From: an uncultured Campylobacterales bacterium
GTDB lineage: Bacteria > Campylobacterota > Campylobacteria > Campylobacterales > Arcobacteraceae
Direction: 5' to 3'
Length of the DNA: 64,000 bases
NCBI GenBank assembly: GCA_947494995.1
Contig: CANLWY010000001.1
Location: 372,001-436,000 of the forward strand
A program made the position numbers and the translations under genes. Below are positions 11,909 through 32,074 of the stretch, one piece after another (position 1 is the stretch's first letter; the number at the start of each line of letters is the position of its first letter). The notes under the pieces are model-generated. The model ran no database searches and was not told where the DNA came from. It was given only the letters and a program-made list of their open reading frames with translations.

Positions 11909-11913
11909 ATAAC

Positions 11914-11945: not shown

Positions 11946-11970
11946 AATAATTTTACTTTTTACAAAACAC

Positions 11971-13333: not shown

Positions 13334-13501
13334 AATCACAAATATTAAAAAATAAAGTGACCTGTGAACAAAAAACAACTACTTAAAAAAAATCAAGGTG
13401 GAGATTTATACTACCTTGATTTATTTGGTTTGTTTTTTATAATTGCTGATTTTTATTTTACTTAAATAGAAAAAGAAATAATTATTTAGAACTTGTGATT
13501 T

Positions 13502-14305: not shown

Positions 14306-14363
14306 AAAGCCTTCTATAATATTTTTCGTGATTATATCATCATAGAAGAAAAAAAACTTATTT

Positions 14364-15956: not shown

Positions 15957-16038
15957 TTTTTCATAGTTTAGAATTATAAGTTATTTTAGGAGATATTTAA
16001 ATTTTATCACACTTTCAAAAGTAGTGCAAAAAATAGAA

Positions 16039-16257: not shown

Positions 16258-16283
16258 AATATTTTTCCTTTCATTATAGAGAT

Positions 16284-16347
16284 ACATATATCGTTGAGTA
16301 ATTTTAACGAATCTTATATTATTGAAATATTAAACATATATATCGTT
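16284..16347. promoter_or_regulatory. Direct repeats upstream of the HTH gene, candidate operators
   Basis: ACATATATCGTT at 16284-16295 and ACATATATATCGTT at 16334-16347 are near-identical and lie in the space between the small exported-protein gene and the HTH gene. AACGA, the reverse complement of part of the motif, occurs near 16307. These are likely binding sites for the neighbouring XRE-type regulator. Confidence 0.5.
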
Positions 16348-16356
16348 AGGAATATT

Positions 16357-16599
16357 TTGAATACGAGTGAACTAGAAGATTTTTCAGAAGAAATACTTGA
16401 TATTGTCTCAAAAAATGTTGCAAAATACCGAAAAGAAAAAGGCTACTCGCAAATGCAATTAGCCTTAGAAATTGGTATGAGTGGTGGAGCTTATCTTGGT
16501 CGTGCTGAAATAAGAAAAGATGGACATCATTTCAATATCAAGCATTTAGCAAAAATTTCTAAAGTTTTGAATGTTGATATATGTAATTTTTTTAAGTAG
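16357..16599 (+). CDS. XRE-family helix-turn-helix regulator
   Basis: About 80 residues with an XRE helix-turn-helix: VAKYRKEKGYSQMQLALEIGM followed by RAEIRKDGHHFNIKHLAKIS, the typical order of helices 1-5. I prefer the TTG start at 16357 because AGGAA precedes it. The same frame runs 21 codons further upstream, but that part covers the repeated motif and has no ribosome site. It diverges from the small exported-protein gene and probably represses from the repeats at 16284-16347. Its stop overlaps the end of the convergent phosphoesterase gene by eight bases. Confidence 0.65.
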   Translation: MNTSELEDFSEEILDIVSKNVAKYRKEKGYSQMQLALEIGMSGGAYLGRAEIRKDGHHFNIKHLAKISKVLNVDICNFFK

Positions 16600-17296
16600 T
16601 AGATTCATTAAGAATCTCTTCAATTAATACATATCTATTTTCTTCACAATATGCTGGAATATTGTAAAATCTTACTCCTTCATAGTCTATTGATTTTCCT
16701 GAATGCAAATGTCCTTCAATAATAATATTGAAATTACTGTGTTTTCTTTTGTACTTATCAATTCTAGATAAAGCAAAGTCATTAAAATTGATACTTTTTC
16801 TTTTATATTTCTTATTTTTATTTGCATAGAATTTATAAAAAAATTCAATTATCCAAGTGAAATTTTTTAGTAATTTATATTTTCTTTTAGTCCTAAAATG
16901 AAAAAGGAAACTACTTTCAGGATAAATATCTCCATGTGAAATCAAAATAGTTTTACCATTATATTTTGTATATAGAGGTTGTTCACTATTAGAAATAAGA
17001 GTAATGTTTGGGAATAATTTTTTTAAATAAAAATCTCTATTTCCTTCAAGATATATTATTTCTTTTTTTATTGATAGTTCATTCAGCTTATTTATCAATT
17101 CTCTATTTTTATTTATAAGTAAAGTGACATCACCTATTAGTAAATCAAAAATATCACCTACTAAAAAAATTTGACTTATTGTTTCATCTTTTTGGATTTT
17201 TTTTAAATGAAAAAGTACTGTTTTTCTATTTATATTATTGAAATGAACATCAGCTATAAAAATAGCTTTTTTATGTATTTTTAATAGCTCGCTCAT
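16592..17296 (-). CDS. LpxH-like calcineurin-fold metallophosphoesterase
   Basis: A 234-residue metallophosphoesterase. All the metal-binding blocks are visible: FIADVH (D, H) near residue 15, GDIFD near 47, GNRD near 100, SHGD near 130 and EGHLHSG near 197. The order and spacing resemble UDP-2,3-diacylglucosamine hydrolase LpxH. However, the location in a mobile element, downstream of the VGRD-motif protein by 30 bases, argues for a cargo role. It could be a nucleotide or nucleic-acid phosphodiesterase in a conflict system. The fold is clear; the substrate is unknown. Confidence 0.75.
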   Translation of the reverse strand: MSELLKIHKKAIFIADVHFNNINRKTVLFHLKKIQKDETISQIFLVGDIFDLLIGDVTLLINKNRELINKLNELSIKKEIIYLEGNRDFYLKKLFPNITLISNSEQPLYTKYNGKTILISHGDIYPESSFLFHFRTKRKYKLLKNFTWIIEFFYKFYANKNKKYKRKSINFNDFALSRIDKYKRKHSNFNIIIEGHLHSGKSIDYEGVRFYNIPAYCEENRYVLIEEILNESTT

Positions 17297-17326
17297 GTAT
17301 TAATATCATCTCTAATAAAATCATCG

Positions 17327-18973
17327 TTATAAATTATCAAGTAAAAGTCTTTCAATACCTTTTAAAGGTTCATTATTCTCTAAAATTGCTTCTAGAAGTT
17401 CATGAATTGTAACATTAATGATTGTTATGTCTCTATTTCCTTTTAGTTTTTGTAAATTTAATTTATAATTAGATTTGGTAACTATAAACATGAAGTTAGT
17501 TACTTGTGAATTTATATTTCGAATTTCTTTCAGAAGTTTTTCTATATGGTCAGTTTTATTGCTATTAATACTAGTTATAAATAATTTTGGTTTTAATGTA
17601 GAAATAAAACCACTTTTTATATCATGGACTACATAAAAAGATCTAGAACCTTTTCTTACTGGAGAACTTTTAACAAAAGGGAATATGTTAATTAACTCTA
17701 ATAGTGTATTATCAAATTCATCATCTGCTAGTGAATTATTATTTATAACTTTTTTAAAACTTGTATGTCTAATCTGTCTTGCAACAATTTCAGTTATAAA
17801 TTCATGTAAAAAAGAAATGTTTTTCCATGAAGAATAAACTTCTTCTTTTGTTAGGTTTCCTTGCTGTATTAATGGTTTCTTTTTAATTTGATTATTTAGT
17901 TTTTTGTAAAAATTTTCTAATGTTAGATTAAGTTTTTTTAAGTCACTCTTCATATTTTCAATATATGAATATTTTAATAATAAATCTAACTTGTTATCTC
18001 TTAATTTTGTTATATAAATCATCAAATTATTTAAAGGAGCATTGATACCACAGCCAATATGTAAATTATAATAAGATAGTATAGTAGCACAAGCATGATA
18101 TATATATTCCTCTATATGCAACTTTATACCTTTTGAACTTTTATTACTTTCCGAAAACTCTATGATTGCTTGAGTATGCTTAAGATATTGCTTATAATTG
18201 TACTCAAGAATGTGATTTGGTGAGTCTTGTTTAATGAACCATGGGTGAGGAGGTTGCGTTACTAGTTCTTCTACTAGAACTACTAAACTATGATAGTGGA
18301 TTCTATACAAATTTAGAGATAATATTGTTTCTTTAATTTCTTCTACCATAGTTCTTTTTTGTGTATTACTTACTACAAGTTCGTCAGATGTAAACTTAAT
18401 GTTATTATCTATTCTTTCAAACACTTCTTCAAGAAGTGTTTCTCTTAAAAATACTGAACTAAGCTTTTCTGTTGAATCATCATTTAAAATAATTTCTAAT
18501 TGTTGTTCTGGATCACCATATCTTCTAACATATTTATCTCCCCAGTTTTCTATTTCTTTTAAAGTGTAATATGATTCATTCATAGAATATATTGAATCAG
18601 CTATTATTTTTCTTATATCATTTGTTGTTAAAATATCAATGAAATCTTTATTTTCTATAATTTCTTTTAAAAAATTTTCTATTATTTCGATACTAACTTT
18701 AATTGGTATCCCAATTTTCCCTAAAGATAAAAGAATTTTTTCAGTACTAAAAGAAGTTTTAGTATTACCTTTCATTGATAAAATTTGATCTGAAAAATTT
18801 TCAGTTATTATTCTATCAGACTTCTCAATTATTTTATTAATACTTTGTAAGGCATCCCTACTAAGCATATTTGAATGTATATCATACAAATGTATATTTG
18901 TGTAGTTATCTCTTCCTACAAAATTATTTGCATTAATACTTTTATTTTCAGTATTATTTGTTTTATTATTCAC
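17327..18973 (-). CDS. Large protein with N-terminal NNFVGRD motif
   Basis: A 548-residue protein I cannot place. It opens with an asparagine-rich segment ending in NANNFVGRDNYTN (residues 15-28). The same HDFVGRD motif ends the small membrane protein encoded immediately upstream. The middle is helical. The C-terminal 120 residues have alternating strands and helices (KPKLFITSINSN, NFMFIVTKSN, DITIINVTIHELLEAI) suggestive of an alpha/beta effector or nuclease-like fold, which is a guess. The start is GTG 18973, directly after the TAA of the upstream gene. It forms a probable operon with the phosphoesterase downstream. Confidence 0.6.
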   Translation of the reverse strand: MNNKTNNTENKSINANNFVGRDNYTNIHLYDIHSNMLSRDALQSINKIIEKSDRIITENFSDQILSMKGNTKTSFSTEKILLSLGKIGIPIKVSIEIIENFLKEIIENKDFIDILTTNDIRKIIADSIYSMNESYYTLKEIENWGDKYVRRYGDPEQQLEIILNDDSTEKLSSVFLRETLLEEVFERIDNNIKFTSDELVVSNTQKRTMVEEIKETILSLNLYRIHYHSLVVLVEELVTQPPHPWFIKQDSPNHILEYNYKQYLKHTQAIIEFSESNKSSKGIKLHIEEYIYHACATILSYYNLHIGCGINAPLNNLMIYITKLRDNKLDLLLKYSYIENMKSDLKKLNLTLENFYKKLNNQIKKKPLIQQGNLTKEEVYSSWKNISFLHEFITEIVARQIRHTSFKKVINNNSLADDEFDNTLLELINIFPFVKSSPVRKGSRSFYVVHDIKSGFISTLKPKLFITSINSNKTDHIEKLLKEIRNINSQVTNFMFIVTKSNYKLNLQKLKGNRDITIINVTIHELLEAILENNEPLKGIERLLLDNL

Positions 18974-19150
18974 TTACTTTTTATCTCTTCCCACAAAATC
19001 ATGTGCTTGAATATCAGTATTTATTGTATTATTATTACCCTCATTAGTAATTTTTTTTATTTTACAAATAAAAAAACCAAAAAATAAGCCAATCATTAAG
19101 CTAATAATACTAGCAATACTTCCAAAGTCTGAGAGTGTTAAAGTTTCCAT
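18974..19150 (-). CDS. Small membrane protein with VGRD tail
   Basis: A 58-residue protein. It has an extracytoplasmic N-terminus, one membrane helix (IASIISLMIGLFFGFFI, about residues 12-28), a basic stop-transfer patch, and a tail ending in IQAHDFVGRDKK. The tail motif recurs at the N-terminus of the next protein (NNFVGRDNY), which suggests the two interact or share a recognition element. The stop TAA touches the GTG start of that gene with no gap. ATAAA before the ATG is a weak ribosome site. Confidence 0.6.
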   Translation of the reverse strand: METLTLSDFGSIASIISLMIGLFFGFFICKIKKITNEGNNNTINTDIQAHDFVGRDKK

Positions 19151-19319
19151 AATTTATCCTTTATTTATGCTGATATTTTAAAATTTGATATAATATAATT
19201 TTATATTCTATTATATCTCTTCTTTATCTTAATTTTTAAATCAATCAAATAATAAAAAATATTGATTATTATATTTTTTTAAGTAAAATCGAAACATATT
19301 TTAAATTCTTGTATTATAT

Positions 19320-20216
19320 ATGGATAATTCAATGGAACTTAATAGTATAAACTCAGTTTGTACTACACCTACAGAACTAATTAAGTCAAATGATTTTCTT
19401 AAATGAATCTCTATTATTTCAACAAAATCAATAGAGTTTGAGGAAGAATATATTATATCACTGTTTATAAAATTACAAAATTGAAACTTTTTAGAAGATA
19501 AAGAGAAGAAAGACTTAAACTCATTTTTAAATAATAAAATGGTATCTCAACTATGACAGGAACTATTGTGTACTCTCAAAAATATTTCAATAAATATAAA
19601 AGCTTTTAAAACCGACGAGCTATTTGATTTTTCAGAATTATTAAATGATATATTTAAGGAAGAATGATTTGTAAAAATAAAATCATGCATATTAGAGGTA
19701 ATAAATTCAACAGAGTGAATTTTAACTGAATATAAATGATTTACGAAAATCTCAATAAATGTTAATAATGAAAAAAAAGAAGTATTTTTAGAAAATGAAA
19801 ACTTAAGAGTAGAAAGTAGGAACTGGATAAAACAAGAGCTTTGATGAGTAAAAGTAAAAATAAATGAAGAATGAGATATTACAGAATATATAGAGTGAGA
19901 ATTTGCATGAGAACAATTGTTTACATGGGATTCTGCTATGAGAGAAGCGAAAAAGCAATGAAAAAGAATACCTAATATAACTGAACTTAAGTCTATTATT
20001 TCTAAAGTTTGAGCAAAAAAATTTATTAAACAATCTCTTGGTTATCGTTATGAAGATTTAAGTGGTTTTTGAAATAGAGAAGCTGAAGTTTATTATTGGG
20101 GATCTTCTTCAGGTATAGAACTTGCAGAATCAATAAGCTTTGATGAAAATTCTGAATTCAGTATTACACATTTTAATAAAGTTTGTGGATTATCTGTTCG
20201 TTGTATAAAAAATTAA
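19320..20216 (+). CDS. Protein with C-terminal lectin/FGE-like domain, readable only with TGA as glycine (298 aa)
   Basis: With TGA as glycine this frame gives 298 residues from ATG 19320 (or ATG 19332) to TAA. About 14 glycines are TGA and five are GGN, while three tryptophans are TGG. The C-terminal third has EGEFAGEQLFTWDSAMREA, KKQGKRIPNITEL, LSGFGNREAEVYYWGSSS and a closing GLSVRCIKN, in which most of the glycines are TGA. This layout matches the FISUMP/DUF1566-like, C-type-lectin-related domains whose proteins end in G-x-S-V-R-C. The N-terminal 170 residues are acidic and unrecognised. A standard-code host would stop at codon 26. Confidence 0.82.
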
Positions 20217-20247
20217 TGAAATATTTATAACTAAATTTAGGTTCTTT

Positions 20248-20275
20248 AAAATAGCAGGATTTAACCTGCTATTTT
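20248..20275. terminator. Bidirectional terminator between convergent genes
   Basis: AAAATAGCAGG and CCTGCTATTTT form a perfect 11 bp stem with a six-base loop, ending in a T run on the plus strand. It serves the TGA-recoded gene on the plus strand and overlaps the stop of the J-domain gene on the minus strand. Confidence 0.85.
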
Positions 20276-20725
20276 TCCTTTTTTCTTATCTTTAAAAGTC
20301 TTACTTCCATACTTAGATTTAATTTCATCCATAGATTTAGGATTAGGATTTTTTGCTTTCATTTCTCCGTAATACCACATCTTCTTTTTACTAGCCCATT
20401 TAAAACCAAGCTCTTTTAATTTATCTTTTATCTCTTTAGTATTTCCACTAACCCAAATCCAAGAACCTACAAGCTCTATGGTAATATCTTCATAATGTAA
20501 AATTTTACTTATAATCTTCTCTAACTCAATATCAATTTTACTATCATTTGAAAAATGTATTTTATGCTCTATAAAATCATTATATACAGCATTTAATATT
20601 TTAAACTCTTCATCACTTCCACCAACATCAGGATGAAGTTTTTTTGCTAATGTTTTATAAACCTTTTTAGCTTCATTTATACCTACTACATCTCTAAACT
20701 CATTTTCTATTTCTAACCTTGTCAT
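20261..20725 (-). CDS. J-domain protein with C-terminal small domain
   Basis: A 154-residue protein. The N-terminal J domain (about residues 1-60) contains the HPD motif in KKLHPDVGGSDEEFK. The C-terminal part has WIWVSGNTKEIKDKLKELGF followed by KWASKKKMWYYGE, a short domain often fused to J domains on plasmids and phages. It would act with the host DnaK. It is the second J-domain protein in the element. Its operon context is monocistronic, with AAAGGA upstream of ATG 20725. Confidence 0.75.
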   Translation of the reverse strand: MTRLEIENEFRDVVGINEAKKVYKTLAKKLHPDVGGSDEEFKILNAVYNDFIEHKIHFSNDSKIDIELEKIISKILHYEDITIELVGSWIWVSGNTKEIKDKLKELGFKWASKKKMWYYGEMKAKNPNPKSMDEIKSKYGSKTFKDKKKGKIAG

Positions 20726-21280
20726 TTCAAATCCTTTAAAAGTTTTTGCCTTTTTTGAAGATTCTGAGGGTTTAACTCTTCTTTTTAAATTTTAAGAAAA
20801 GAGAAACTAAACTCTTTTTCTTTTTTAGGCTTTTGCCTCTTTAGTTAGTTCATCGGGCTTTTTTCAAAGAGAAATGAAATAGCTTTTTGCTTGGTATAAA
20901 ATTAGAATTTGAAGTTGTGAAAATTTAATTTTAAAGTCAGTAAATAAGATATTAAAATGTAGCGACTAAAAAGCCTATTGAACTATTGAGTTTGCAAAAT
21001 CTAACAAAAGATATGTTTAGTGTTTTTTATTCTGTTATGAAATAAAAATTTAAAATAGAAGAGTGTATTTACTCCGTAGGATAGCCCTGATAGTAGTGTA
21101 GTGAAATCTTTGATTTTATTTTAAATGGATAGCAGGTATTAGCTAAAAAGAACTAATGCCTTGTAGTTGTTGGCTCATCCACGACTTACAAATAGCTTGT
21201 AAGCTTTCGCAGTGAGCAAAAGTATATTAATTTAGGGATTTTTTTGTAATATAAATCATGATAAAAAAATGGACTAAATA
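20726..21280. other. Noncoding 555 bp with hairpins, possible structured RNA
   Basis: No convincing reading frame in either genetic code. Short hairpins are visible: AGGC-TTTT-GCCT near 20830, an AGGTATTAG/CTAATGCCT stem near 21135-21162 with one G-U pair, and CTTACAA-ATAGC-TTGTAAG near 21184-21202. Base composition is higher in GC at 21060-21220 than in the surroundings. This could be a small RNA, a leader or an attachment/replication site. I do not recognise it. Confidence 0.3.
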
Positions 21281-21562
21281 ATGAGCATATTTAAATTTAA
21301 TGATAAAGATAGTTGTTATAAAGCTGTTGGTGCTGTATATAAAAAAGCAAAAGAGTATCAATCTCAACCAAAGCCAAAAGGTGTAAAATGTAATTTATTA
21401 ATCTTTGAAATTTATGATAGTAATGATAATATAGTTGAAACAGGAAGTATAAATAGTGAAGAAAAAAGAAAAAACTTTACAAAATTAGTTTATAAAACAG
21501 GAATAGGTTATATAAAAACTTCATATACAGAACATCCAATCCCTTGTTTTATGCTTTCATAG
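21281..21562 (+). CDS. Hypothetical protein (93 aa)
   Basis: A 93-residue protein, basic, without a family I recognise. It opens with MSIFKFNDKDSCYKAVGAVY and ends in YTEHPIPCFMLS. The body has the alternating pattern of a small alpha/beta protein. There is only a weak ribosome site. It converges with the 148-residue gene that ends at 21571. All glycines are GGN, so it reads normally under the standard code. It may be a cargo gene of the mobile element. Confidence 0.4.
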   Translation: MSIFKFNDKDSCYKAVGAVYKKAKEYQSQPKPKGVKCNLLIFEIYDSNDNIVETGSINSEEKRKNFTKLVYKTGIGYIKTSYTEHPIPCFMLS

Positions 21563-21570
21563 GATTTATT

Positions 21571-22017
21571 TTAGATTTTCATTATAAGCCTATAATCAGG
21601 CTCTCTACCTAATTGGTGTTTTAAATCTATATTTTCAAGGATTAATCCTAGTTTTGTGGGAACATAGTCTTCTAAAATAATACTATCATCAAGATCTAAC
21701 GCTTGTTTTGCAATATTTTGTACAGTTGGACTATTTCCAAGTTTTTGATTAAAACTTTTTTTGTCATGTCTTGTTCCATCGTCATTCCAAGACACTTGCT
21801 TTGTTTTTGCATTTATATGTTTATCTTTTGCAATATGCACATGTAATTTTTGAGTATGATTTGTAGGTTTATCAATTCTTATTTTATATCCTTTTTTATT
21901 AGAGTCAACCCACCGACCTTCATTTAATAAAAATGATTTTTTTATTGATTCAATAGGAATATCAATCAACAAATAATTAATTTTTTCTTCAATAAGGAAT
22001 TCTTTAAATCTCCCCAT
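21571..22017 (-). CDS. Hypothetical basic protein with histidine motifs (148 aa)
   Basis: A 148-residue protein. It has GRWVDSNKKGYKIRID near residue 36 and then HTQKLHVHIAKDKHINAKTK near residues 54-73, a histidine-rich patch that could bind metal or nucleic acid. This is followed by VSWNDDGTRHDKKSF. The layout, with a short all-helical C-terminus (IAKQALDL), resembles small toxin-like or DUF6367-type proteins, but I am not certain. The start ATG follows AAGGAT. It diverges from the gene preceding the methyltransferase. Confidence 0.45.
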   Translation of the reverse strand: MGRFKEFLIEEKINYLLIDIPIESIKKSFLLNEGRWVDSNKKGYKIRIDKPTNHTQKLHVHIAKDKHINAKTKQVSWNDDGTRHDKKSFNQKLGNSPTVQNIAKQALDLDDSIILEDYVPTKLGLILENIDLKHQLGREPDYRLIMKI

Positions 22018-22160
22018 AATTATAATCCTTTGTATTTAATTTTAATAGTAGATGTTAGCTTATTTTATAATAAATTTACAAATTTATATTTTTTGTGACG
22101 CGAAATGTGACGTAAAAATTGTAAAATGATTAAATAAAGAATTTTAGGAGATAATTTATA

Positions 22161-22448
22161 ATGACAGATATATCAAAAGTAACAAAATGGCTAAGAGAAA
22201 ATACTGAATTATCTTGGACTAGAACAGATGGAGATAGTCCAGCTACAAAGCAAGATAGCTATTATATAAATAGAAGTGAAGCATATGAGTTTAGAGATTT
22301 AATAATGGATTTTTACTCGGAATGTAATTTGACACATAAAGATACAAACTATGAAATCACATATAAAAAAATTCTTAATTATAGAAAAGGTGATAAAGTA
22401 AAGCGAAAAGAAATGTTAGAGTATCTAATTAGTAGTTCAAAAAAATAA
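22161..22448 (+). CDS. Hypothetical protein upstream of the methyltransferase (95 aa)
   Basis: A 95-residue protein, not recognised. It has TELSWTRTDGDSPATKQDSY near residue 15 and a helical, basic C-terminus (YRKGDKVKRKEMLEYLI). It precedes the DNA methyltransferase by about 125 bases in the same direction and could be an accessory or control protein of that system. It does not show an obvious helix-turn-helix of the C-protein type. A GGAG ribosome site lies upstream of ATG 22161. Confidence 0.45.
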   Translation: MTDISKVTKWLRENTELSWTRTDGDSPATKQDSYYINRSEAYEFRDLIMDFYSECNLTHKDTNYEITYKKILNYRKGDKVKRKEMLEYLISSSKK

Positions 22449-22573
22449 TCACTTCAGTATTATTTGAGAGAAAAGTAATAAAATGTACGATAAAATATTT
22501 CAATATGCAATAATCCTGGACAAATAGTAAAAATTTGGATAAAATATTGTCAAAAAAACAGTATAGGAAAACA

Positions 22574-23755
22574 ATGTATATAGACTTATTTTCAGGATGT
22601 GGAGGTCTTGCTTTAGGATTACATAAAGCAGGATGGCAAGGACTATTTGCTATTGAAAAAAGTAAAGATGCTTTTTCAACAATTAAACATAATCTTTTAA
22701 ATGAAAACTCTAACTTTTTATGGCCTGAATGGTTACCTAAAAAAAATCATGATATTAATAATATTATTGAAGAATATGAAGAAAATTTAAAATCTTTACG
22801 TGGAAAAATTTCTCTTGTTGCAGGAGGGCCACCTTGCCAGGGGTTTTCTATGGCAGGTAGAAGAAAAGAAAAAGATGAACGTAATGAACTTATTGATTCT
22901 TATGTAAAATTCATTGAGTTAGTTCAACCAAAAGTTTTATTCTTTGAAAATGTAAAAGGCTTTACTATAGGTTTTAAAAAAGGAAATAAAAGAGGTCAAG
23001 CTTATTCTAATTATGTATTAAAAAAATTAAAAAAGTTAGGATATAACGTACATGGAGAAATAGTAGACTTTTCTGAATATGGAGTTCCTCAAAAAAGACA
23101 AAGATATATATTAGTTGGAATAAAAGATGGTGAAGCAAATAGTTTTTTTGAATCAATAAAAGAAAATAGAGCTAATTTCTTTAAATCAAAAAAACTTAAT
23201 GACAATACCTCTTTAAGTGAAGCTATCTCTGATTTATTAAAGTCTAATGGAACAAAAGAATCTCCAGATACTAAAAACTTTCAAGCCGGTGTTTACAATA
23301 GTTCATTAAGCTCTTATCAAAGATTAATGAGAGAAGGTAAATACTTAAAAAATAAAATTGCAGATAGTCATAGGTTTGCAAATCATAAAAATGAAACAAT
23401 AGAAAAATTTGATTATATACTTAAAAATGCGAGAGCTAATAAAAATATACCTGATAGTATAAAAGAGAAATATAATCTTAAAAAAAGAACTATAGTTCCT
23501 TTATGTAAAGAGTCTCCAACCCCTACACTAACTACACTCCCTGATGATTATATTCATTATTGTGAACCAAGAATTTTAACAGTAAGAGAATATGCAAGAA
23601 TTCAATCCTTTCCAGATAGTTATGAATTTAAAGGTGGCTATACAACAGGTGGTGAAAGAAGAAAAATTGATGTGCCTAGATATACTCAGATAGGTAATGC
23701 AATACCTCCTCTTTTTGCAGAACAAGCAGGTATTATATTAAAGAGAATGGCTTAA
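22574..23755 (+). CDS. C5-cytosine DNA methyltransferase
   Basis: A 393-residue methyltransferase. Motif I DLFSGCGGLALGL binds AdoMet. Motif IV GGPPCQGFS carries the catalytic cysteine at about residue 88. Motif VI is FFENVKG, motif VIII QKRQRY, and motif X YTQIGNAIPPLFA. A target-recognition region lies between motifs VIII and IX (about 190-310); its sequence target is unknown. I chose ATG 22574 because AGGAAAA precedes it and family members start just before DLFSG; a TTG 39 bases upstream is the alternative. The stop overlaps the next start (TAATG). No restriction enzyme of a known type follows. Confidence 0.92.
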   Translation: MYIDLFSGCGGLALGLHKAGWQGLFAIEKSKDAFSTIKHNLLNENSNFLWPEWLPKKNHDINNIIEEYEENLKSLRGKISLVAGGPPCQGFSMAGRRKEKDERNELIDSYVKFIELVQPKVLFFENVKGFTIGFKKGNKRGQAYSNYVLKKLKKLGYNVHGEIVDFSEYGVPQKRQRYILVGIKDGEANSFFESIKENRANFFKSKKLNDNTSLSEAISDLLKSNGTKESPDTKNFQAGVYNSSLSSYQRLMREGKYLKNKIADSHRFANHKNETIEKFDYILKNARANKNIPDSIKEKYNLKKRTIVPLCKESPTPTLTTLPDDYIHYCEPRILTVREYARIQSFPDSYEFKGGYTTGGERRKIDVPRYTQIGNAIPPLFAEQAGIILKRMA

Positions 23756-26295
23756 TGAAAACTACTCAATGGGAAAATGTATATTTTTTATCGCATGTCA
23801 ACATAAAAAACATTATCGGTAAAGAACTTATTAATGATGATAATGTTGCAGTAATGGAACTTGTAAAAAATTCTTATGATGCAGGTGCTAAAAAAGTAAT
23901 AGTTGAATTTAAAAACTTAATAAGTCAATATAAAAAAGACCATCAACTTATTATATCTGATGATGGAACAGGTATGTCAAAAGATGATATATTACATAAA
24001 TGGCTAAATCTTGCATATTCAATTAAAAGAGTACAAAGTGCACAAAATCAAAGACTCCAAGCAGGGAATAAGGGAATAGGTCGTTTTTCTTGTGACAGGC
24101 TGGGTAAAAAACTGGATATTTATACAAAGCAAAATCAAAAAGCATACCATTTAAATATAAATTGGGAAGACTTTGAAGATGTGCTAGACTATAATATTCA
24201 GATTAATGAAATTCCAATGAAATTAAGAGAGATTTCTGATACTGAAATAAAAGAAGAAACTTCTTATGAAATTGATAAAAGTGGAACAATTATCAAAATA
24301 TCATACTTAAGAGCTAAATGGATTAAGTTCAATGATGAAAGTTTATTTAATGAAGTGTTGAATTATCAAAAATTTGTTTCTCTTAAATCAACCCTTGAAA
24401 AACTTATTAATAAAAGTCAGGTTGAAAGTGACAACTTTAAAATTTTTCTAAAAGTGAAAGAAATAGATGATAAAAAAGAAGAGTCTTATAATAAAAAAAT
24501 AAATGGAGAAATAAAAAATAAGTTTTTTGAGAAACTTGATTTTAATACAACTTATATTCATTCTGCAATTAGTGATGATGGGAAATATATTATTACTAAA
24601 TTAAAAGATAGAGATAAGACTGTCTTTAAAACTATGGAAAAAAATATAGAGTTTCCTGATTTAAAAGGCATCAAAATAATTTTAATGCATTTAAATCCAT
24701 ATGGGAAAGTATATTTTGACAAACAAATGGGAGTTAGAGGTGTAGATTTTGGTTCAGTATATCTATTTATTAATGGATTTAGAATACCACCTTATGGAGA
24801 TATAGATAACGACTCTTTTGGTATAGAAATGAGAAAAGGTCAAGGGCAAAGAAGATATCTAGGTGGAAGAGATATTATTGGTAGAGTAGAAATTGAAGAT
24901 CGAAAGAATCAATTTAAAGTCATATCTAGTAGAGAAGGAATTGTTCAAAACGAAGTTTATAGACAACTTATTCATAAATCAACGAAATCAACTAAAAAGC
25001 AAATCAAGAATAATGGATTTTTTTATAAAACACTAAGGAAACTTGAAAAATATGTTGTTGATGGACTTAAATGGGATAGTGTTTCTAGGGGTTTAACAGA
25101 AACTAAAATTAAAGAAATGATAAATCAAAGATATTGGAAAGAAAGTAAAGAAATTTATCTTATTTCTAGAGAAGAGAAACTTAATAATATAAGTAAAAAA
25201 ATATTTTCAATAATGGGAATAGATTCAAAAAGTATTGTTGATTTATTTATTAATGATAATATATTACCTCATTTAGTAGAGGATAATACACTTCGAACTC
25301 AAAAAAATATAACTCAATTTTTAAGAGAAGTAAGTAGAATTCCAAATTATGCATTAGATGAAAGACTAAAATCAAGTATTCATAAATTAACTAAAAAAAT
25401 CAAAGATGAAAAATTATTGAAAAAAGTTGATTTTGTTTTAAATAATAGTTTGACAGAAATTGATGAGATATTTGATAAAGAAGAAAAATATAATCAATTA
25501 GATAAAAAAATAAAAATTCTTGAAACAGACCAAGAAGATTTAAAAAAAGAATTAGTTGAAAGCCAAAAAGAAACAGAGACATTAAAAAAAGAAAATAAAA
25601 AAATAAATCAACAAGTATCATATCTTAAATCAATTACAACAAAAGAAATTAAAGAATTAGTAGCTTTTCAACATCATATTGGGTTATATGCAAAAACTGC
25701 AAAAAACTTTACATTAGATACAATAGATTTAATTACAGATGGTGATTCTTCGGATGAAGAGTATTTAGAAAATCTTCAAGAAGTAATTCTTGAATTAGAA
25801 AAAATAAAAACAATAAGTAAGTATATAACAAGAGATGACTTTTTATCAACGGCAAAAAAAGTAAAAACTGATTTAGTAGAGTTTACTTTTAATTACGTTA
25901 AATCAATTTATGAAGTAACAACAAATAAAGAGTTTGAAATAGAAATTAATACAAATAATGTTGTACATATTTGTAGTTTTGAACCTATTAAAATAAATAT
26001 TATAATTGATAATCTACTAAATAATTCAAAAAAAGACTCTATCAATGCAAAAAAAGTAAAAATAAACTTTTTAAAAGAAGATGATAATTTACTTATGGAA
26101 TATATAGATGATGGTAATGGGATAGATGATTCAATTGTTGATGAAAATTCAATTTTTGAAATGGGTATAACAACTACAGATGGTTCCGGTCTTGGTTTAT
26201 ATCATATAAAAGAATTATTATCAGAAATTAAATCAGAAATATCAGTAGAAAGGCAAAAAAAGGGCATAAAGTTCCTAATAAGGTTTAAGATATGA
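23755..26295 (+). CDS. Double GHKL ATPase (MORC/histidine-kinase-like)
   Basis: An 846-residue protein with two GHKL-type ATP-binding sites. The N-terminal one has the N box MELVKNSYDAGA at residues 35-44, G1 DDGTGM at 69-74 and G2 GNKGIGRF at 104-111, as in MORC, Hsp90 and MutL relatives. A coiled coil spans about 590-650. The C-terminal one resembles histidine-kinase CA domains: NIIIDNLLNNSKKD, YIDDGNGI and TTDGSGLGLYHIKELL. No clear phosphoacceptor histidine box is seen. The gene overlaps the methyltransferase stop and the next gene start, so the three act together. GHKL ATPases of MORC/MutL type linked to restriction-modification genes are known, but the role here is unproven. Confidence 0.88.
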   Translation: MKTTQWENVYFLSHVNIKNIIGKELINDDNVAVMELVKNSYDAGAKKVIVEFKNLISQYKKDHQLIISDDGTGMSKDDILHKWLNLAYSIKRVQSAQNQRLQAGNKGIGRFSCDRLGKKLDIYTKQNQKAYHLNINWEDFEDVLDYNIQINEIPMKLREISDTEIKEETSYEIDKSGTIIKISYLRAKWIKFNDESLFNEVLNYQKFVSLKSTLEKLINKSQVESDNFKIFLKVKEIDDKKEESYNKKINGEIKNKFFEKLDFNTTYIHSAISDDGKYIITKLKDRDKTVFKTMEKNIEFPDLKGIKIILMHLNPYGKVYFDKQMGVRGVDFGSVYLFINGFRIPPYGDIDNDSFGIEMRKGQGQRRYLGGRDIIGRVEIEDRKNQFKVISSREGIVQNEVYRQLIHKSTKSTKKQIKNNGFFYKTLRKLEKYVVDGLKWDSVSRGLTETKIKEMINQRYWKESKEIYLISREEKLNNISKKIFSIMGIDSKSIVDLFINDNILPHLVEDNTLRTQKNITQFLREVSRIPNYALDERLKSSIHKLTKKIKDEKLLKKVDFVLNNSLTEIDEIFDKEEKYNQLDKKIKILETDQEDLKKELVESQKETETLKKENKKINQQVSYLKSITTKEIKELVAFQHHIGLYAKTAKNFTLDTIDLITDGDSSDEEYLENLQEVILELEKIKTISKYITRDDFLSTAKKVKTDLVEFTFNYVKSIYEVTTNKEFEIEINTNNVVHICSFEPIKINIIIDNLLNNSKKDSINAKKVKINFLKEDDNLLMEYIDDGNGIDDSIVDENSIFEMGITTTDGSGLGLYHIKELLSEIKSEISVERQKKGIKFLIRFKI

Positions 26296-27233
26296 AGTTA
26301 AAATATAAAATACTATGGATTGAAGATGAGCCAAAGTCAATAAAAAGAGAAGCCACAAAAGTCAAAAAATATTTAAATGATGATTATGGTTTTGAATGTA
26401 AAAATGATGATATAACCATAAAAAATTATGAAGAATTTCAAAGTGAATTTATTGATACAGATGGAAAAGTTAAATCAAAGATTGAAGAATTTGATCTTTT
26501 ATTAGTTGATTTTGATTTAGGAGAAGAAGAACATACTGGTGATATATTAATAGATATTATCAGAAAATCTGTATATTCAGAAATTTTATTTTATTCTTCA
26601 AATTATGAAGAACTTAGAAGTAAATTAGACCAACATTTTATAGATGGTGTTTTTACTTCAAATAGAGATGAATTAGAAGAGAAAGTTAAAAAGCTTATTA
26701 ATGTAACCATAAAAAAAGTTCAAGACGTTAATAATTTAAGAGGCTTAATAATGGCAGAAGTTGCTGAATTAGATAGAATAAAAGAAAGAATTATTTCTAA
26801 TGCTTCTTCAAAAGTATCAGGGAAAAAACTTGAAAGATATATTTTGAAAAAAATCAAAAGTTCTGGTAATACTACTAAAAACCAAGCTGAAGGACATTTA
26901 GAAGATATAAGTAATGTATCATTTAATGGTCTGTTTTCAAAAATAGGATTTGTTGATAGTAATAAGAAGGCAATGACAATAGGTGAAGTTTTAAAAGAAT
27001 GTAATATTAATAATCCTGTATGTAAAGATACTTTTTTTAGACCTTATAAAGAAAAAATATTGGATAGAAGAAATATCTTTGCCCATGTTGAAGAATGTGA
27101 TATTTCTGATGAAAATGGAAATACATGCAAATTCATAAATGATATTCCATTCACAGAAGAAAAATGTATAGAAATTAGAAAAGAAATTAAAGACTACAAA
27201 AAAATTTTAATTGAAATTGAAAAACAATTATAA
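26292..27233 (+). CDS. Receiver-like protein with C-terminal HEPN-type motif
   Basis: A 313-residue protein. Residues 5-130 resemble a response-regulator receiver: acidic pair E11 D12 in ILWIEDEP, a candidate phosphoacceptor D73 in LLLVDFDLGE, and S102/S103 in ILFYSSN. The invariant lysine near residue 122 is missing. The C-terminal half contains LDRRNIFAHVEE, in which R260-N-I-F-A-H265 matches the R-X4-H catalytic motif of HEPN ribonucleases. It overlaps the GHKL gene by four bases. The arrangement suggests the ATPase controls a receiver-HEPN effector. The HEPN call is by motif only. Confidence 0.72.
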   Translation: MKLKYKILWIEDEPKSIKREATKVKKYLNDDYGFECKNDDITIKNYEEFQSEFIDTDGKVKSKIEEFDLLLVDFDLGEEEHTGDILIDIIRKSVYSEILFYSSNYEELRSKLDQHFIDGVFTSNRDELEEKVKKLINVTIKKVQDVNNLRGLIMAEVAELDRIKERIISNASSKVSGKKLERYILKKIKSSGNTTKNQAEGHLEDISNVSFNGLFSKIGFVDSNKKAMTIGEVLKECNINNPVCKDTFFRPYKEKILDRRNIFAHVEECDISDENGNTCKFINDIPFTEEKCIEIRKEIKDYKKILIEIEKQL

Positions 27234-28790
27234 TGAGTTCCAATTTCTCTTGATAAAGTCCACCATTAAAGATTTCGACCTTTTTCATATTGAAAAAGCC
27301 TGATAGATAAGGGAAAAAGTAGGTGTTCCAACCTGCTTTTTTTCGTTTATAGGAATTCACTTAGGAAAGATATTTTTTATAAGAGCCTTCTTATTTTCCA
27401 AGTCACTACTTTTCCATATATTTAAGCTATTTCTTACTAATCTCATTTTTCTTTTTAGAGGTGTTCCAACATTTATAGTCTCTTTTTGTAAATTTTGTGA
27501 AATTTGTTCTTTTTGAGTCTTTAAATTTTCTATCTCACTTTCATAATTTTCAATTATTAAGTCACTTGCAGTTTTTCAAATTCTTTCAATGAACCTTGAT
27601 ATTTTTTTATCTATAGCCTTTGATTCTTTTTTTAATTCTTCTTTATATTCATTAAGTTCTGTATTTTTGTCTTTTGAAAGTTTTTTCAATGTTTCTTCAA
27701 AGGCTTTTACTAACTCTTCTTTAGGCTGTATTTCTTTTAGAAGTTTCTCAAAATGTAAATGTAATTGATCTTTATTTATAGATTTTCACCACATAGGGGA
27801 TTTTCTAGGATATTGATAATATGGAAATTTACCACTTTTACCAGTACTCCATGAAGCAGTAATCATTTGCTTTGATTTTTCACAATACAAAAATCATCTT
27901 AAAGGGAAGTCTATAGTTCTATCAACTCTATTTAAATTGGATTCAATTTTAGCAACTATACTTTGAGGAGTAGTACTTATTTTCTTTTGAATTTTTTCAA
28001 AAGTTTTTAGAGATATAAGAGCTTTATGTTTAGCTTTTCTTCTATCAACTCACCATTTAGGAAATTCTAAATATCATGCATATAAAACATTTTTTAACAT
28101 TCTAGAAGCTAAATTTGAATTATATACTTTTCAGTTTTTTATAGTTCAAACTTTTATTCCTTTCTTATTTAAGAATTTTACTACATCATTGATAGATTCA
28201 AGCTCATCATTAGAATACTTTTCTAAAGCTAGTCTAACAGGTCTATAACTTTCTTCATCAAGTAAAATTTCTTTTCATCATTTTGAATTTGTACTAAACT
28301 TATATCAAATAGGAACTTTAAAGCACCAATAACCTTGTTCTAGTCTAGCTTTCATTCTATCATTTACTCTTTGTTTGTTTTTATCCTTCTCATATTGTGC
28401 CATTGATACACTCATATTTTCTCTAAAGGTTCATTCTGGGCTATCTTCAAATTTAAAATTTGGACTTGCTAATTCAACTCATCTTTTTTTAAATTCTGCT
28501 TTTAACAAGTTATGAACTTGTATATCTCTTGATAATCTATTTAAATCTTCAAAAATAACCATATAGTTTGATGATTTATTTTTATCTATGTATTTAAATA
28601 GTTCTATAATACTTTTTCTTTCAAATACTCATCAACTAGCTCATTCTTCATTAAAAACCTTTTCTACGTCAATTCAGAGGGTATTATTTGCATAATCTCT
28701 ACATCTTTTTTCTTGTGAAGATAAACCATTTCATTCATTCACTTGTTTTTTTGAAGAAACTCTACAATATATAAGTCATTTTAGTTTCAT
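27228..28790 (-). CDS. Large serine recombinase, readable only with TGA as glycine (520 aa)
   Basis: With TGA read as glycine this frame gives a complete large serine recombinase from ATG 28790. The resolvase domain has YCRVSSKKQ (catalytic serine about residue 12), EGNGLSSQEKRC and FNEEGASGGVFERKSI. The recombinase domain has EDSPEGTFRENMSVSMAQYE, VPIGYKF, LYAGYLEFPKWGV and DFPLRGFLYC. Around 20 glycines are TGA and seven GGN. The TGA codons fall on glycines conserved in the family, and tryptophans (GYW, KWG, ASW, MWG) are TGG. The zinc-ribbon cysteines are mostly missing. A tail of 43 residues after a TGA at 27357-27359 may be attachment-site sequence rather than protein. Its end overlaps the stop of the convergent HEPN gene. 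Confidence 0.95.
27314..27343 (+). terminator. Terminator-like hairpin after the methyltransferase operon
   Basis: AAAAAGTAGGT and ACCTGCTTTTT form an 11 bp stem with one U-G pair and a six-base loop, followed by more T on the plus strand. It lies 80 bases after the HEPN gene and inside the 3' end of the recombinase reading frame. Confidence 0.6.
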
Positions 28791-28807
28791 AAATAAATAG
28801 TTTAATA

Positions 28808-28948
28808 TTAAGATAGGGAAGAGGAATTATCCTCTTCTTTTATATTTAAATATATATTTGCTAAATCACTTAGCAATTTCATTATTTCTTTTTTTTCTTC
28901 TTCTGTATAGTAAGAGGGAAGAAGAGATTTAATTTCTTTTGTATCCAC
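28808..28948 (-). CDS. Small acidic protein upstream of the serine recombinase (46 aa)
   Basis: A 46-residue frame starting at GTG 28948: VDTKEIKSLLPSYYTEEEKK in its first twenty residues, followed by a helix and an acidic serine-rich end. It ends 17 bases before the recombinase start and runs in the same direction. It has no glycine codon, so its genetic code cannot be judged. Small helical proteins encoded beside large serine recombinases may be directionality or accessory factors; this role is inferred from position. Confidence 0.5.
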   Translation of the reverse strand: MDTKEIKSLLPSYYTEEEKKEIMKLLSDLANIYLNIKEEDNSSSLS

Positions 28949-28969
28949 TTATAGATAATTGTTTAAATT

Positions 28970-29335
28970 TTATTTTTTCCACAAGTTCTTTTTATATTCT
29001 CCAGTTAAAAACTGCTGTTTAGTTTCTTCTAAAAGCTTTTTAATTTTCTCTTGCTCTAGTCCTTGCTTTTCTAGAGAACTTGTATCTTGAACTAAGGAAA
29101 CAACTTGTAAAGCTTTTTCTTCTGCTCTTTTTTCTTTTAGAGTTTTAATATCAACTATTTCATTTCCAAAGTTATCTAGTCCTAATAACTCTAGGAGTTT
29201 TATAGATTTATTTGAGTTTAGAATATTCTCAATATTTTTATTTGAGATATTTAAAAAAGTATTTATATCCTCAATTGATATTTTTAGTTCTTTTTGTCTA
29301 GTGTAAACTTTTGCTATAAAATCTTTATCTCTCAT
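28970..29335 (-). CDS. HTH-like protein paired with the AAA ATPase
   Basis: A 121-residue protein. The N-terminal half resembles a helix-turn-helix (VYTRQKELKISIEDINTFLN, then ISNKNIENILN). The C-terminal half is a charged coiled-coil helix ending in TGEYKKNLWKK. I chose ATG 29335 because it lies five bases after the ATPase stop; a longer frame starting inside the ATPase gene exists. It may be an antitoxin or regulator for the upstream ATPase and could bind the 22 bp repeats upstream of that gene. Neither role is demonstrated. Confidence 0.55.
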   Translation of the reverse strand: MRDKDFIAKVYTRQKELKISIEDINTFLNISNKNIENILNSNKSIKLLELLGLDNFGNEIVDIKTLKEKRAEEKALQVVSLVQDTSSLEKQGLEQEKIKKLLEETKQQFLTGEYKKNLWKK

Positions 29336-29340
29336 AATTA

Positions 29341-30591
29341 TTAAATTAATACCCTTAAAGGAATAGCCCAAAATTGATATTCTTCTAATTTAAATGGCAA
29401 GATTTTATCTCCACCATATAGAACAATACCTTTAAAGTTTTTCTTTTTTATTGTTTTTGCTAAAGCTAATATCCCTTTAAATTGTTCTTTTTTGATACTT
29501 GAACCTGATTTAATTTCTAGTGCTACAATATCTCCTGCACTTGATTCAATAACAAAATCTACTTCTCTACTTTGTTGGTCTCTATAATGGTATATTTCAA
29601 CATTTTCATCTGAATAGGATTGATGTTTAATTAATTCACTATAAACAAAGGTTTCAACTAAATTACCTAAGTGTTCATTTTTACCAATTAAAGAAGATTT
29701 AATATCTGAATTAAGTAAAAAACTTGCTAATCCTGAATCTATAAAATGTACTTTTGGACTTTTAATAACTCTTTTTAACATATTATTTGAATAAGCAGGA
29801 ACAAGGTTTACAATATATAAAGCTTCTAAAAGTCCTATATATTTCCTAACTGTTTTATCTGTTAAACCTATTGCTTGGGCTATATTAGTGTAATTTACTA
29901 ATGAACCAACTTGAGAAGCTAAAACTTTTAAAAGTTTGTCTAAATGTATAATTTTTTCAATTTGTACATTTTCAAAATCGGCAATATCTTTTGTAATTCT
30001 TGATTTTATATAAAATTCGTACCAAGCTTTTTTAGCTTTTAGTGGCAACTCATAAACTTCAGGGTAACCTCCATTTATAACTGCTTCGATAAAAGATTCC
30101 CTTGAAGTATCTTTATATACTTCAAGATTGTTAAAATCGTCACTAAATAGTTTATCTATAATGTTTATATCTCTTTTATTTATCTCTGCATAAGACAGAG
30201 GAAATAAATTAAAACTTGCCATTCTTCCTGCTAAAGACTCTTTAATCTTTGAGTTTTTGAACATATCAGAAGAACCTGTTAATAAAAACATTCCTTTTCT
30301 ATTCTCATTATCTACAGCCATTTTTATTGCAGGTATTACTCTAGGTATCATTTGCACTTCATCAATAGCTACATTTTTTTCTTTTGATATATAGTCGATA
30401 AACCCATTTGTATCATTTGTTACAGTTTCAAATGTTTCACTATCATCAAAAGTATAATAGTCCATCTTTTTATTTTTAACTATTTTTTTTTGAAGAGTTG
30501 TTTTTCCTGATTGTCTTGGCCCATTTATTGCAACAACCCTAAAATATTTTAGCATTTCAATTATTGTTGATTCTATTTTTCTATGTACCAT
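29341..30591 (-). CDS. AAA_14/DUF4143 ATPase
   Basis: A 416-residue ATPase of the AAA_14-DUF4143 family. Walker A is GPRQSGKTT near residue 24, Walker B is VAIDEVQMIP near 95, and sensor I is LLTGSSD near 125. The C-terminal DUF4143 part has VDFVIESSAGDIVALEIKSG, a restriction-endonuclease-like D...ExK pattern (D and EIK near residues 342-360). Family members are widespread on mobile elements and in variable genome regions and their function is poorly known. It is preceded by six phased repeats at 30619-30768 and followed by a small HTH protein. Confidence 0.85.
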   Translation of the reverse strand: MVHRKIESTIIEMLKYFRVVAINGPRQSGKTTLQKKIVKNKKMDYYTFDDSETFETVTNDTNGFIDYISKEKNVAIDEVQMIPRVIPAIKMAVDNENRKGMFLLTGSSDMFKNSKIKESLAGRMASFNLFPLSYAEINKRDINIIDKLFSDDFNNLEVYKDTSRESFIEAVINGGYPEVYELPLKAKKAWYEFYIKSRITKDIADFENVQIEKIIHLDKLLKVLASQVGSLVNYTNIAQAIGLTDKTVRKYIGLLEALYIVNLVPAYSNNMLKRVIKSPKVHFIDSGLASFLLNSDIKSSLIGKNEHLGNLVETFVYSELIKHQSYSDENVEIYHYRDQQSREVDFVIESSAGDIVALEIKSGSSIKKEQFKGILALAKTIKKKNFKGIVLYGGDKILPFKLEEYQFWAIPLRVLI

Positions 30592-30618
30592 AATATAACC
30601 TTTTATAAAATACTTATT

Positions 30619-30768
30619 ATAATTTTCCGAATCTACAATAAATATATTCCGGATTTACAAGACAAATAATACGAATTTCTTACTTAAAAGCAAATTTTAT
30701 TCTGTTCATTCCGAAAATTCAAAGCAATTATTCCGAAATTTCACTACCTCAAATACGAAATATCCACA
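30619..30768. repeat. Six ATTCCGAAATTT-type repeats with 22 bp phasing
   Basis: Six copies of a motif close to ATTCCGAAATTTC. Their central G bases fall at 30629, 30651, 30673, 30713, 30735 and 30757, that is at steps of 22, 22, 40, 22 and 22. Three carry CCGAA, one CCGGA and two ACGAA. They fill the whole space between the integrase stop and the ATPase start. Two-turn spacing suggests cooperative protein binding: an operator, an iteron-like replication site, or recombination accessory sites. Confidence 0.75.
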
Positions 30769-31881
30769 TTATTTATACAATTCTTGTATATACTCTTTCC
30801 CACTATCAGGACTTAGTTTTGCATACCTCATAGTTTGCTTTATATCTTTGTGATTCATTAATTTTTGAATTGTAAATATAGGAGTGCCATTAATAGCTAG
30901 ATGTGAAGCAAAAGTATGACGTAAAGTATGTATTACAACTCTATTTCTAGTATCTTTTATATCTAAATCTTTGTTAAAAAGTTCATCTAAAATAGGCTTC
31001 ATTTTTCTGCTTATGTAGTCATCAAGGTTACCAATAACCTTTGTATCATACATTAAAATATAATCATTACTTCTTAATTTTGAAGCTCTTTTTTTTAATA
31101 TATTAACTATATCATCTTGTAGGAATCCTCTGTAATATGATTCATTTTTATAATCACGTAATGATACTATTTTATTTTCTAAGTCTAAGTCTTTCTTTTT
31201 TATTGTTGTAATAGCTTTTAATCTTGCTCCTGTATTTAAAGCTAGTCTTGTAAACAGATATAATTGTTCATTGTCTTTTAATTCATCATATAGTTCTTTA
31301 ATCTCTTCTAAACATAAATATCTAAGTCTTTCATTATTTGTTTTAAACTTTTTTACAAGTCTTGTTGGACTAGGAATTTTAATTATATCTCTATTAAATG
31401 CATGGTTATAAATAGTACCTATTGCTTGAACTAGATGATTAATTGTTTTTAGTGCGAGTTTTTTCTTTTTATCTTGCATCATTTTTTCTATTAGTTCAGG
31501 TGTAATTTCATCAATAGCTAAATCTCTTGTATATGGCTTTATATGTTTTTCATATCTTGCACGTTGGTTTTTGTAATCTTTATTATGAACTTCACTATAT
31601 TCAAAATAAATTTCAGCAATTTCAGCGAATAGCTTTTCTTTTTTCTTTGTGTTTACAACTGGGCTATCATCTCCAAATTTTATATTGTTGATTGCTTCTA
31701 TTCTTTTTTGATGGCAAAATGCTTCTGTTATTCCTTCACTCTTTTTTCCTATTTGAATTCTTACATGTTTATCTTTTAATTTATAACTGATATAATAACT
31801 TTTATCATTGTTTTTTAATACTTTATGAAGTACTCCAGTATACCTTTTAGATTTTATAAAACTAGACATTTTCTTCTCCAT
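30769..31881 (-). CDS. Tyrosine site-specific integrase
   Basis: A phage-type integrase of about 370 residues. The catalytic set is visible: R in LNTGARLKAITTIK, HTLRHTFASHLA (H-x-x-R), LMNHKDIKQTMRYAKLSP (H and nucleophile Y). The N-terminal arm-binding region and the SAM-like core-binding domain precede it. I chose ATG 31881 because AGGTGG lies just upstream; this ribosome site is itself part of the TGCCACCT pair, so integrase binding there could repress its own translation or transcription. It lies about 150 bases inside attR and reads inward. It is the likely driver of insertion into tRNA-Arg and uses the standard code. Confidence 0.93.
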   Translation of the reverse strand: MEKKMSSFIKSKRYTGVLHKVLKNNDKSYYISYKLKDKHVRIQIGKKSEGITEAFCHQKRIEAINNIKFGDDSPVVNTKKKEKLFAEIAEIYFEYSEVHNKDYKNQRARYEKHIKPYTRDLAIDEITPELIEKMMQDKKKKLALKTINHLVQAIGTIYNHAFNRDIIKIPSPTRLVKKFKTNNERLRYLCLEEIKELYDELKDNEQLYLFTRLALNTGARLKAITTIKKKDLDLENKIVSLRDYKNESYYRGFLQDDIVNILKKRASKLRSNDYILMYDTKVIGNLDDYISRKMKPILDELFNKDLDIKDTRNRVVIHTLRHTFASHLAINGTPIFTIQKLMNHKDIKQTMRYAKLSPDSGKEYIQELYK

Positions 31882-31885
31882 TTTG

Positions 31886-31905
31886 TGCCACCTGTATGCC
31901 ACCTA
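31886..31905 (+). repeat. Right copy of paired TGCCACCT sites
   Basis: TGCCACCT at 31886-31893 and 31897-31904 repeats the pair at 4341-4359 in the same orientation, with a single base difference. It covers the leader of the integrase gene. Candidate arm-type integrase sites. Confidence 0.7.
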
Positions 31906-32032
31906 AAGTGCAAAAATATAACTTTTTTTGCTAAAATTTGAATAATCTAATTATATCAAAAAATACCGATAAAAAGGGCTTTGTATGTGATTTGATAAGC
32001 TTTGAAGAGATATGAAAATAATGTTTTTTTCT

Positions 32033-32074
32033 GTTTCGGCCCCGGTGGTTGTGGGTTCGAATCCTACCAGGCGT
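32033..32074 (+). repeat. Right attachment core (attR)
   Basis: Identical over 42 bases to the 3' part of tRNA-Arg at 4226-4267. The following base is G instead of A, then CCATT matches. Only this tRNA fragment is present; there is no 5' half, so it is not a second tRNA gene. Confidence 0.93.

What the first reader, a model, noticed from the sequence alone, without database searches (positions are those of the whole stretch)
30619..30768. Six repeats at exact 22 bp phasing between the integrase and AAA ATPase genes
Six ATTCCGAAATTT-like units have centres at steps of 22, 22, 40, 22 and 22 bases and fill the whole spacer. Two-turn phasing suggests a protein lining one face of the helix. Candidates are an operator for the ATPase/HTH operon, iterons for autonomous replication, or recombination enhancer sites.
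Basis: seen in the sequence. Interest (0 to 1): 0.72.

Follow-up and report, generated by a model that had tools for sequence, protein, structure and literature searches.

The report
ATPase-nuclease reads phased promoter repeats
The six evenly spaced repeats are one copy of a DNA-binding array found in many bacterial phyla in front of one of the commonest but untested candidate phage-defence genes (PDC-S01), and sequence co-variation indicates that the ATPase-nuclease encoded there binds them itself, most likely to switch itself down.

Summary
In detail: six units with CG centres at steps of 22, 22, 40, 22, 22 (a triplet repeated at +84 bp) between an integrase gene and an AAA_14-DUF4143 ATPase gene. 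The array belongs to the ATPase (PADLOC PDC-S01), not to the integrase or the small HTH gene. Arrays with period 22/23 (score >=26) lie upstream of 39% of 122 homologues (all 11 above 40% identity), against 0.07% of 2898 control windows and none of 117 downstream windows. They cluster in one clade spanning about eleven phyla. The shared motif, ATTCCGAATT(G/T)GACG, is antisense to the gene in the window's clade and sense in most others, so it acts as double-stranded DNA. Wherever a strict three-unit pattern matches in the genomes scanned, the match is at this promoter. Motif divergence tracks one protein region, the winged helix of the ATPase (best of 389 windows, p~0.0025). Lys246 goes with C at motif position 5 (28/28 Lys; 2/14 others), and all nine distinct held-out plasmid and viral loci agree (one loosely aligned). 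Best reading: an autoregulatory, probably autorepressing, operator bound by a STAND-like AAA-wHTH-nuclease. Binding and the sign of regulation are inferred, not shown.

The parts
30623..30682 (-). Core operator: three phased units (30623-30638, 30645-30660, 30667-30682; period 22) between the ATPase start codon and its candidate -10; the unit motif reads ATTCCGAATTTAC on the + strand
   Evidence: equivalent units conserved in position in Campylobacterota orthologues
30707..30766 (-). Distal triplet of units 30707-30722, 30729-30744, 30751-30766, an 84-bp-shifted copy of the core triplet; a degenerate remnant is present in the closest relative (L033)
30666..30693 (-). Candidate promoter TTGCTT-16-TATTAT (30693-30688 and 30671-30666); the -10-like hexamer touches unit 3
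   Evidence: TATTAT/TAATAT present in all seven aligned upstream regions; not called by the consensus scan, so inferred
29341..30591 (-). AAA_14-wHTH-DUF4143 ATPase-nuclease (PADLOC PDC-S01), 416 aa; proposed binder of the array
   Evidence: co-variation
29821..29859 (-). Recognition helix of the ATPase winged helix (protein residues 245-257; Lys246 the putative specificity residue)
   Evidence: AF2 model
30769..31902 (-). Tyrosine recombinase (integrase) of the host island; neighbour, not part of the module
28970..29335 (-). Small HTH protein; neighbour; homologues elsewhere are unlinked to the ATPase
4268..32074 (.). Integrative mobilizable island in tRNA-Arg (4195-4271), 42-bp att repeat 4226-4267 / 32033-32074, that carries the module

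Best explanation
The repeats are an autoregulatory operator of the ATPase gene. The winged-helix domain between the AAA module and the DUF4143 (PD-(D/E)XK-type) domain of the ATPase recognises each ~15-bp unit; protomers occupy successive units 22 bp (about two turns) apart and probably contact one another, as STAND/AAA proteins do when they oligomerise. Because the core units run from the -10 region to just before the start codon, the most likely effect is repression of its own transcription, keeping a potentially harmful nuclease low. Shown by computation: the array, its conservation, its restriction to this promoter in the genomes scanned, and residue-base co-variation with the ATPase's own HTH. 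Inferred: physical binding, cooperativity, the sign of regulation, and what relieves it.
For: 22/23-bp arrays upstream of 39% of 122 homologues versus 0.07% of control windows and 0% downstream; all 11 homologues above 40% identity have best lag 22. Common motif across phyla. No conserved neighbour gene near the array-bearing ATPases, so the ATPase is the only shared protein. A three-unit pattern matches only at this promoter in G000 and only at the ATPase promoter in five relatives. Partial correlation of motif divergence with protein divergence peaks at residues 232-257, the HTH, permutation p about 0.0025 to 0.0075. Lys246 with C at motif position 5: 28/28 Lys, 2/14 non-Lys, Fisher 8e-9, next best column 1e-4; the rule holds in all nine distinct held-out plasmid and viral loci (one, L179, only loosely aligned to the motif). 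AF2 model pLDDT 90 with canonical winged helix. First unit starts at a median of -96 and the last ends at a median of -18 from the start codon; unit 3 overlaps a conserved TATTAT.
Against: No experiment. Many homologues, including almost all of a sister clade of 31 rows and most of a second Campylobacterota group, have no array, so this is not a property of all PDC-S01 proteins; two Azotobacter plasmid copies also lack it. The co-variation tests use related sequences; local-swap permutations reduce but do not remove shared ancestry. The promoter is inferred and the consensus scan did not call it. Activation instead of repression is not excluded.
Confidence: 0.77

Rival explanations
1. The ATPase binds its own promoter array but as an activator, or as a parking site for the nuclease (an oligomer stored on DNA and released by a trigger such as phage infection), not as a simple repressor.
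For: Binder-identity evidence is the same. STAND proteins with solved structures near this fold assemble on a trigger (AVAST5, NLR resistosomes). Some arrays have 5-7 units, more than plain repression needs.
Against: Core units in the window group lie at and downstream of the candidate -10, a repression geometry; no data on triggers.
Confidence: 0.2
2. Operator for the small HTH protein encoded downstream.
For: The HTH gene starts a few bases after the end of the ATPase gene, so the two may be co-transcribed.
Against: No homologue found in G098, G100, G084, G136, G077 and G028, which have arrays; where it exists it is unlinked to the ATPase, and in G011 it lies behind an integrase without array. 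The motif co-varies with the ATPase HTH instead.
Confidence: 0.03
3. Iterons or a centromere-like site: the ATPase is an Orc1/Cdc6-like initiator or a partition ATPase acting on the array of the mobile element.
For: AAA plus winged helix with arrays of direct repeats resembles initiators; Foldseek lists ORC subunits and DnaA among weak hits; two 3-unit blocks around a promoter resemble the layout of some partition sites; several copies sit on plasmids.
Against: The same single-gene module occurs in chromosomes, islands, plasmids and viral contigs with no conserved partner; only 3-4 units in 38 of 43 arrays, tied to one promoter.
Confidence: 0.06
4. Integrase arm-type or recombination enhancer sites.
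For: Adjacent to an integrase gene in the window and in G020 and G011.
Against: The array is 1.3 kb from the att core; TGCCACCT pairs 11 bp apart at 4341/4352 and 31886/31897 are better arm candidates; 28 other integrase homologues lack the array; ATPase arrays occur without any integrase.
Confidence: 0.02

Closest known systems
PADLOC PDC-S01 (AAA_14-DUF4143 ATPase)
   Same: The gene behind the array is a clear member (PDLC04790, 457 bits); described as an ATPase fused to a PD-(D/E)XK-superfamily domain, fourth commonest defence candidate in prokaryotes (PMC12988326)
   Different: In the passages read no DNA target, operator or regulation is mentioned; the word DUF4143 occurs in one paper of the library. 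The array marks one large clade, not all of PDC-S01
MalT and other STAND transcription regulators
   Same: ATP-dependent STAND proteins that act on DNA sites as oligomers (MalT: PMC10427625, abstract only; its direct-repeat sites are from memory)
   Different: MalT uses a separate C-terminal LuxR-type HTH and activates other operons (from memory); here the winged helix of the STAND core itself appears to read DNA, at its own gene only
SSO1545 / PABY2304 archaeal STAND ATPases (PDB 2fna, 2qen)
   Same: Closest solved folds over residues 1-294 (Z 13.9 and 15.6)
   Different: No phased array was examined for them; 13-15% identity
Plasmid iterons / partition sites with direct repeats
   Same: Short direct repeats at about two-turn spacing next to the gene of the proposed binder
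   Different: Single target promoter, 3-4 units, no replication or partition partner

Membership tests
PDC-S01 (AAA_14-DUF4143) | Match to the family profile over the whole protein | tested here: met
   PDLC04790 residues 1-415, E 1.6e-137; Pfam AAA_14 and DUF4143 above cut-off
PDC-S01 (AAA_14-DUF4143) | Walker A/B and PD-(D/E)XK-type catalytic residues | tested here: met
   GPRQSGKTT, D77 E78, and E343 D345 E359 K361 invariant in 22 diverse members
PDC-S01 (AAA_14-DUF4143) | Antiphage activity | not testable with these tools
   No experiment; [quoted passage not shown]
STAND-type AAA ATPase | P-loop core followed by winged helix, similar to NLR/SSO1545 structures | tested here: met
   VIA-align Z 13-15.6 to 2qen, 2fna, RPP1 and CED-4, aligned over residues 1-294 for the best
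Autoregulatory operator | Sites for the gene product in its own promoter, conserved with the gene | tested here: met
   Conservation and residue-base co-variation; binding itself not measured
Autoregulatory operator | Expression changes with the regulator | not testable with these tools
   Needs a reporter assay
Tyrosine-recombinase arm-type sites | Repeats shared by both ends of the element near the att core, and kept with the integrase | tested here: not met
   Array 1.3 kb from the att core and absent behind 28 other integrase homologues; TGCCACCT pairs fit instead
Replication iterons | Array next to a replication initiator in an autonomously replicating element | tested here: inconclusive
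   No Rep gene among the island genes scanned (not every ORF was scanned); the ATPase is only remotely ORC-like

The most novel reading that the evidence does not exclude
A whole clade of the abundant but unexplained PDC-S01 proteins are STAND nucleases whose NLR-like winged helix reads a phased DNA array at their own promoter; oligomers assembled on the array both silence the gene and hold the nuclease inactive until an invader disturbs the ATP state or titrates the protein, so that array and enzyme together form a one-gene sensor.
Probability: 0.2. Interest if true: 0.88.

Novelty: new variant of a known kind. Interest (0 to 1): 0.73.

Why it matters
PDC-S01 is reported as the fourth commonest defence candidate across prokaryotes, with nearly 40,000 copies counted (PMC12988326), and its mode of action is unvalidated. 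A DNA target that co-varies with one residue of its winged helix gives a concrete handle: it says that the protein binds specific DNA, where, and through which residue, and it supplies a ready substrate for biochemistry. It also suggests that the winged-helix domain of STAND ATPases, usually discussed as a structural switch in NLR-type immune proteins, reads DNA sequence in this bacterial branch.

Tried and rejected
Integrase arm sites: rejected. HTH protein as binder: rejected. Genome-wide regulon: none found with a three-unit pattern. RNA-level function: no Rfam match, and the motif is antisense to the gene in one clade and sense in others. Transposon-like array at both ends of the gene: no array downstream in 117 loci. 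Conserved partner gene: none. CRISPR-like array: units of about 15 bp with 7-bp spacers; not pursued. The first genome-contig scan with a single protein found nothing. Simple mutual information without correction for relatedness gave a mixed list of columns and was replaced by the partial-correlation test. 22-bp signals of score 24 in AT-rich Campylobacterota group-2 homologues (L049, L050, L051) were treated as composition noise. The sequence search of solved structures gave only P-loop matches.

Full report
Observation. Six units lie between the integrase stop (30769) and the ATPase start (30591, minus strand). CG centres are 30628, 30650, 30672, 30712, 30734, 30756, steps 22/22/40/22/22. 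The layout is a triplet repeated at +84 bp. Lag 22 is the best of all lags 14-49 in the region upstream of the ATPase.

Setting. The window carries an integrative mobilizable island in tRNA-Arg (4195-4271): a 42-bp tRNA 3' repeat occurs at 4226-4267 and 32033-32074, with the integrase next to the right end, a relaxase, a coupling protein and other cargo. The integrase's own likely arm sites are TGCCACCT pairs 11 bp apart at 4341/4352 and 31886/31897, unrelated to the array.

Whose array is it? Orthologues of the ATPase at 67-81% identity in seven other genomes all carry the array just upstream, in varied surroundings: behind an integrase in G011 and G020 but in other contexts elsewhere, and without the downstream HTH gene. 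The HTH homologue in G011 lies elsewhere, directly behind another integrase and without array; in the window the array+ATPase cassette therefore looks inserted between an integrase and its usual HTH neighbour (inference). Twenty-eight other integrase homologues have no array behind them.

How far does it go? I gathered 122 homologues from whole-genome searches and from a scan of GTDB contigs and scored three-copy similarity at each lag in the 200 bp upstream. With score >=26, 39% have lag 22 or 23; among 2898 other windows of the same loci 0.07% do, and none of 117 windows after the stop codon; other lags show no such excess. A tree puts 45 of 48 array-bearing proteins in one clade of 60 that includes named members of Pseudomonadota, Campylobacterota, Acidobacteriota, Actinomycetota, Gemmatimonadota, Spirochaetota, Chloroflexota, Thermodesulfobacteriota, Myxococcota, Armatimonadota and Bacteroidota (many are MAGs, so single phylum assignments could be binning errors). 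Loci not used to build the motif also show it: four of six named plasmid copies and six of twelve viral-contig copies, that is six of the eight most similar.

The motif. Aligning the units of all loci on either strand gives ATTCCGAATT(G/T)GACG. In the window's clade the motif is antisense to the gene, in most others sense. A function in RNA would not survive that flip, so the element acts as double-stranded DNA. Arrays have 3-7 units (38 of 43 have 3-4), period 22 in 37 and 23 in 6, and end a median of 18 bp before the start codon. In Campylobacterota the first core unit abuts a conserved TATTAT/TAATAT, a candidate -10 (the consensus scan does not call it).

Who binds? There is no conserved neighbour gene, and in the eight genomes searched with a strict three-unit pattern the only matches are at the ATPase promoter (G062 and G136 gave none, as their units deviate from the pattern). 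The remaining candidate is the ATPase. Its AF2 model (mean pLDDT 90, pTM 0.91) shows an AAA core, a winged helix (helices 215-226, 234-241, 245-257, strands 261-264 and 280-283) and a C-terminal domain with invariant E343/D345/E359/K361. If it binds, motif changes should track that winged helix. In a sliding-window test over 389 windows, corrected for whole-protein divergence, the top ten windows fall in residues 232-257 (best r 0.40 against a median of 0.03); the same window is best within the sense-motif subset and within the antisense subset. Permutations, including swaps only among near relatives, give p 0.0025-0.0075. The single best protein column for motif position 5 is residue 246 at the start of the recognition helix: Lys in 28 loci, always with C; non-Lys in 14, with C in only two, one of them Arg (Fisher 8e-9, next column 1e-4; Fisher ignores relatedness). 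The rule was then applied to loci not used in building it: four plasmid and six viral loci (nine distinct, two being identical; L179 only loosely aligned) all agree, and six of eight weak-array loci agree.

Mechanism. Best supported: the ATPase's winged helix reads each unit, copies line up two turns apart, and the gene is autoregulated, most likely repressed, since units cover the -10 to leader region. Binding, cooperativity and sign are inferred. The closest folds are STAND proteins: archaeal 2qen and 2fna, NLR resistosomes, CED-4, AVAST5, several of which oligomerise; MalT is a STAND regulator of transcription (PMC10427625).

Known context. The protein is PADLOC PDC-S01, reported as the fourth commonest defence candidate in prokaryotes, with a PD-(D/E)XK-type domain and no validated mechanism (PMC12988326). 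The term DUF4143 occurs in one paper of the library, and a combined search for an array of this sort found none. Absence from an open-access library is not proof that it is undescribed.

Limits. Not all PDC-S01 proteins have the array; sister clades mostly lack it. No experiment was done. The helical geometry argument is weak by itself, since 22 bp is 2.1 turns.

Noticed in passing
4226-4267 and 32033-32074: A 42-bp direct repeat of the tRNA-Arg 3' part delimits a 27.8-kb integrative mobilizable island with relaxase, type IV coupling protein, DnaJ-domain and HNH genes.
   Followed up: partly
4341-4360 and 31886-31905: TGCCACCT direct-repeat pairs 11 bp apart near both island ends: likely integrase arm-type sites; the right pair overlaps the called integrase start.
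   Followed up: partly
22535-27233: C5 DNA methyltransferase next to an 846-aa protein with a BbrUII-like/HATPase_c_3 N-terminus and a histidine-kinase-like C-terminal ATPase domain, then a 313-aa protein without Pfam match: looks like an unusual restriction or sensor module.
   Followed up: no
32218-33120: A NERD-domain gene just outside the island end is split into two frames (32218-32583, 32632-33120), with a topoisomerase-type zinc ribbon on the second part: possible pseudogene.
   Followed up: no
L186 1391-1501 (G011:C61): Between a related integrase and the HTH gene there are TATGACATA / TATGTCAGTTATGACATA inverted repeats, a candidate operator of that HTH protein itself.
   Followed up: no
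L104, upstream of 774: The Oceanicaulis MAG copy has at least seven near-identical 22-bp units (ATTCCGAATCTGCSG), the longest array seen.
   Followed up: no
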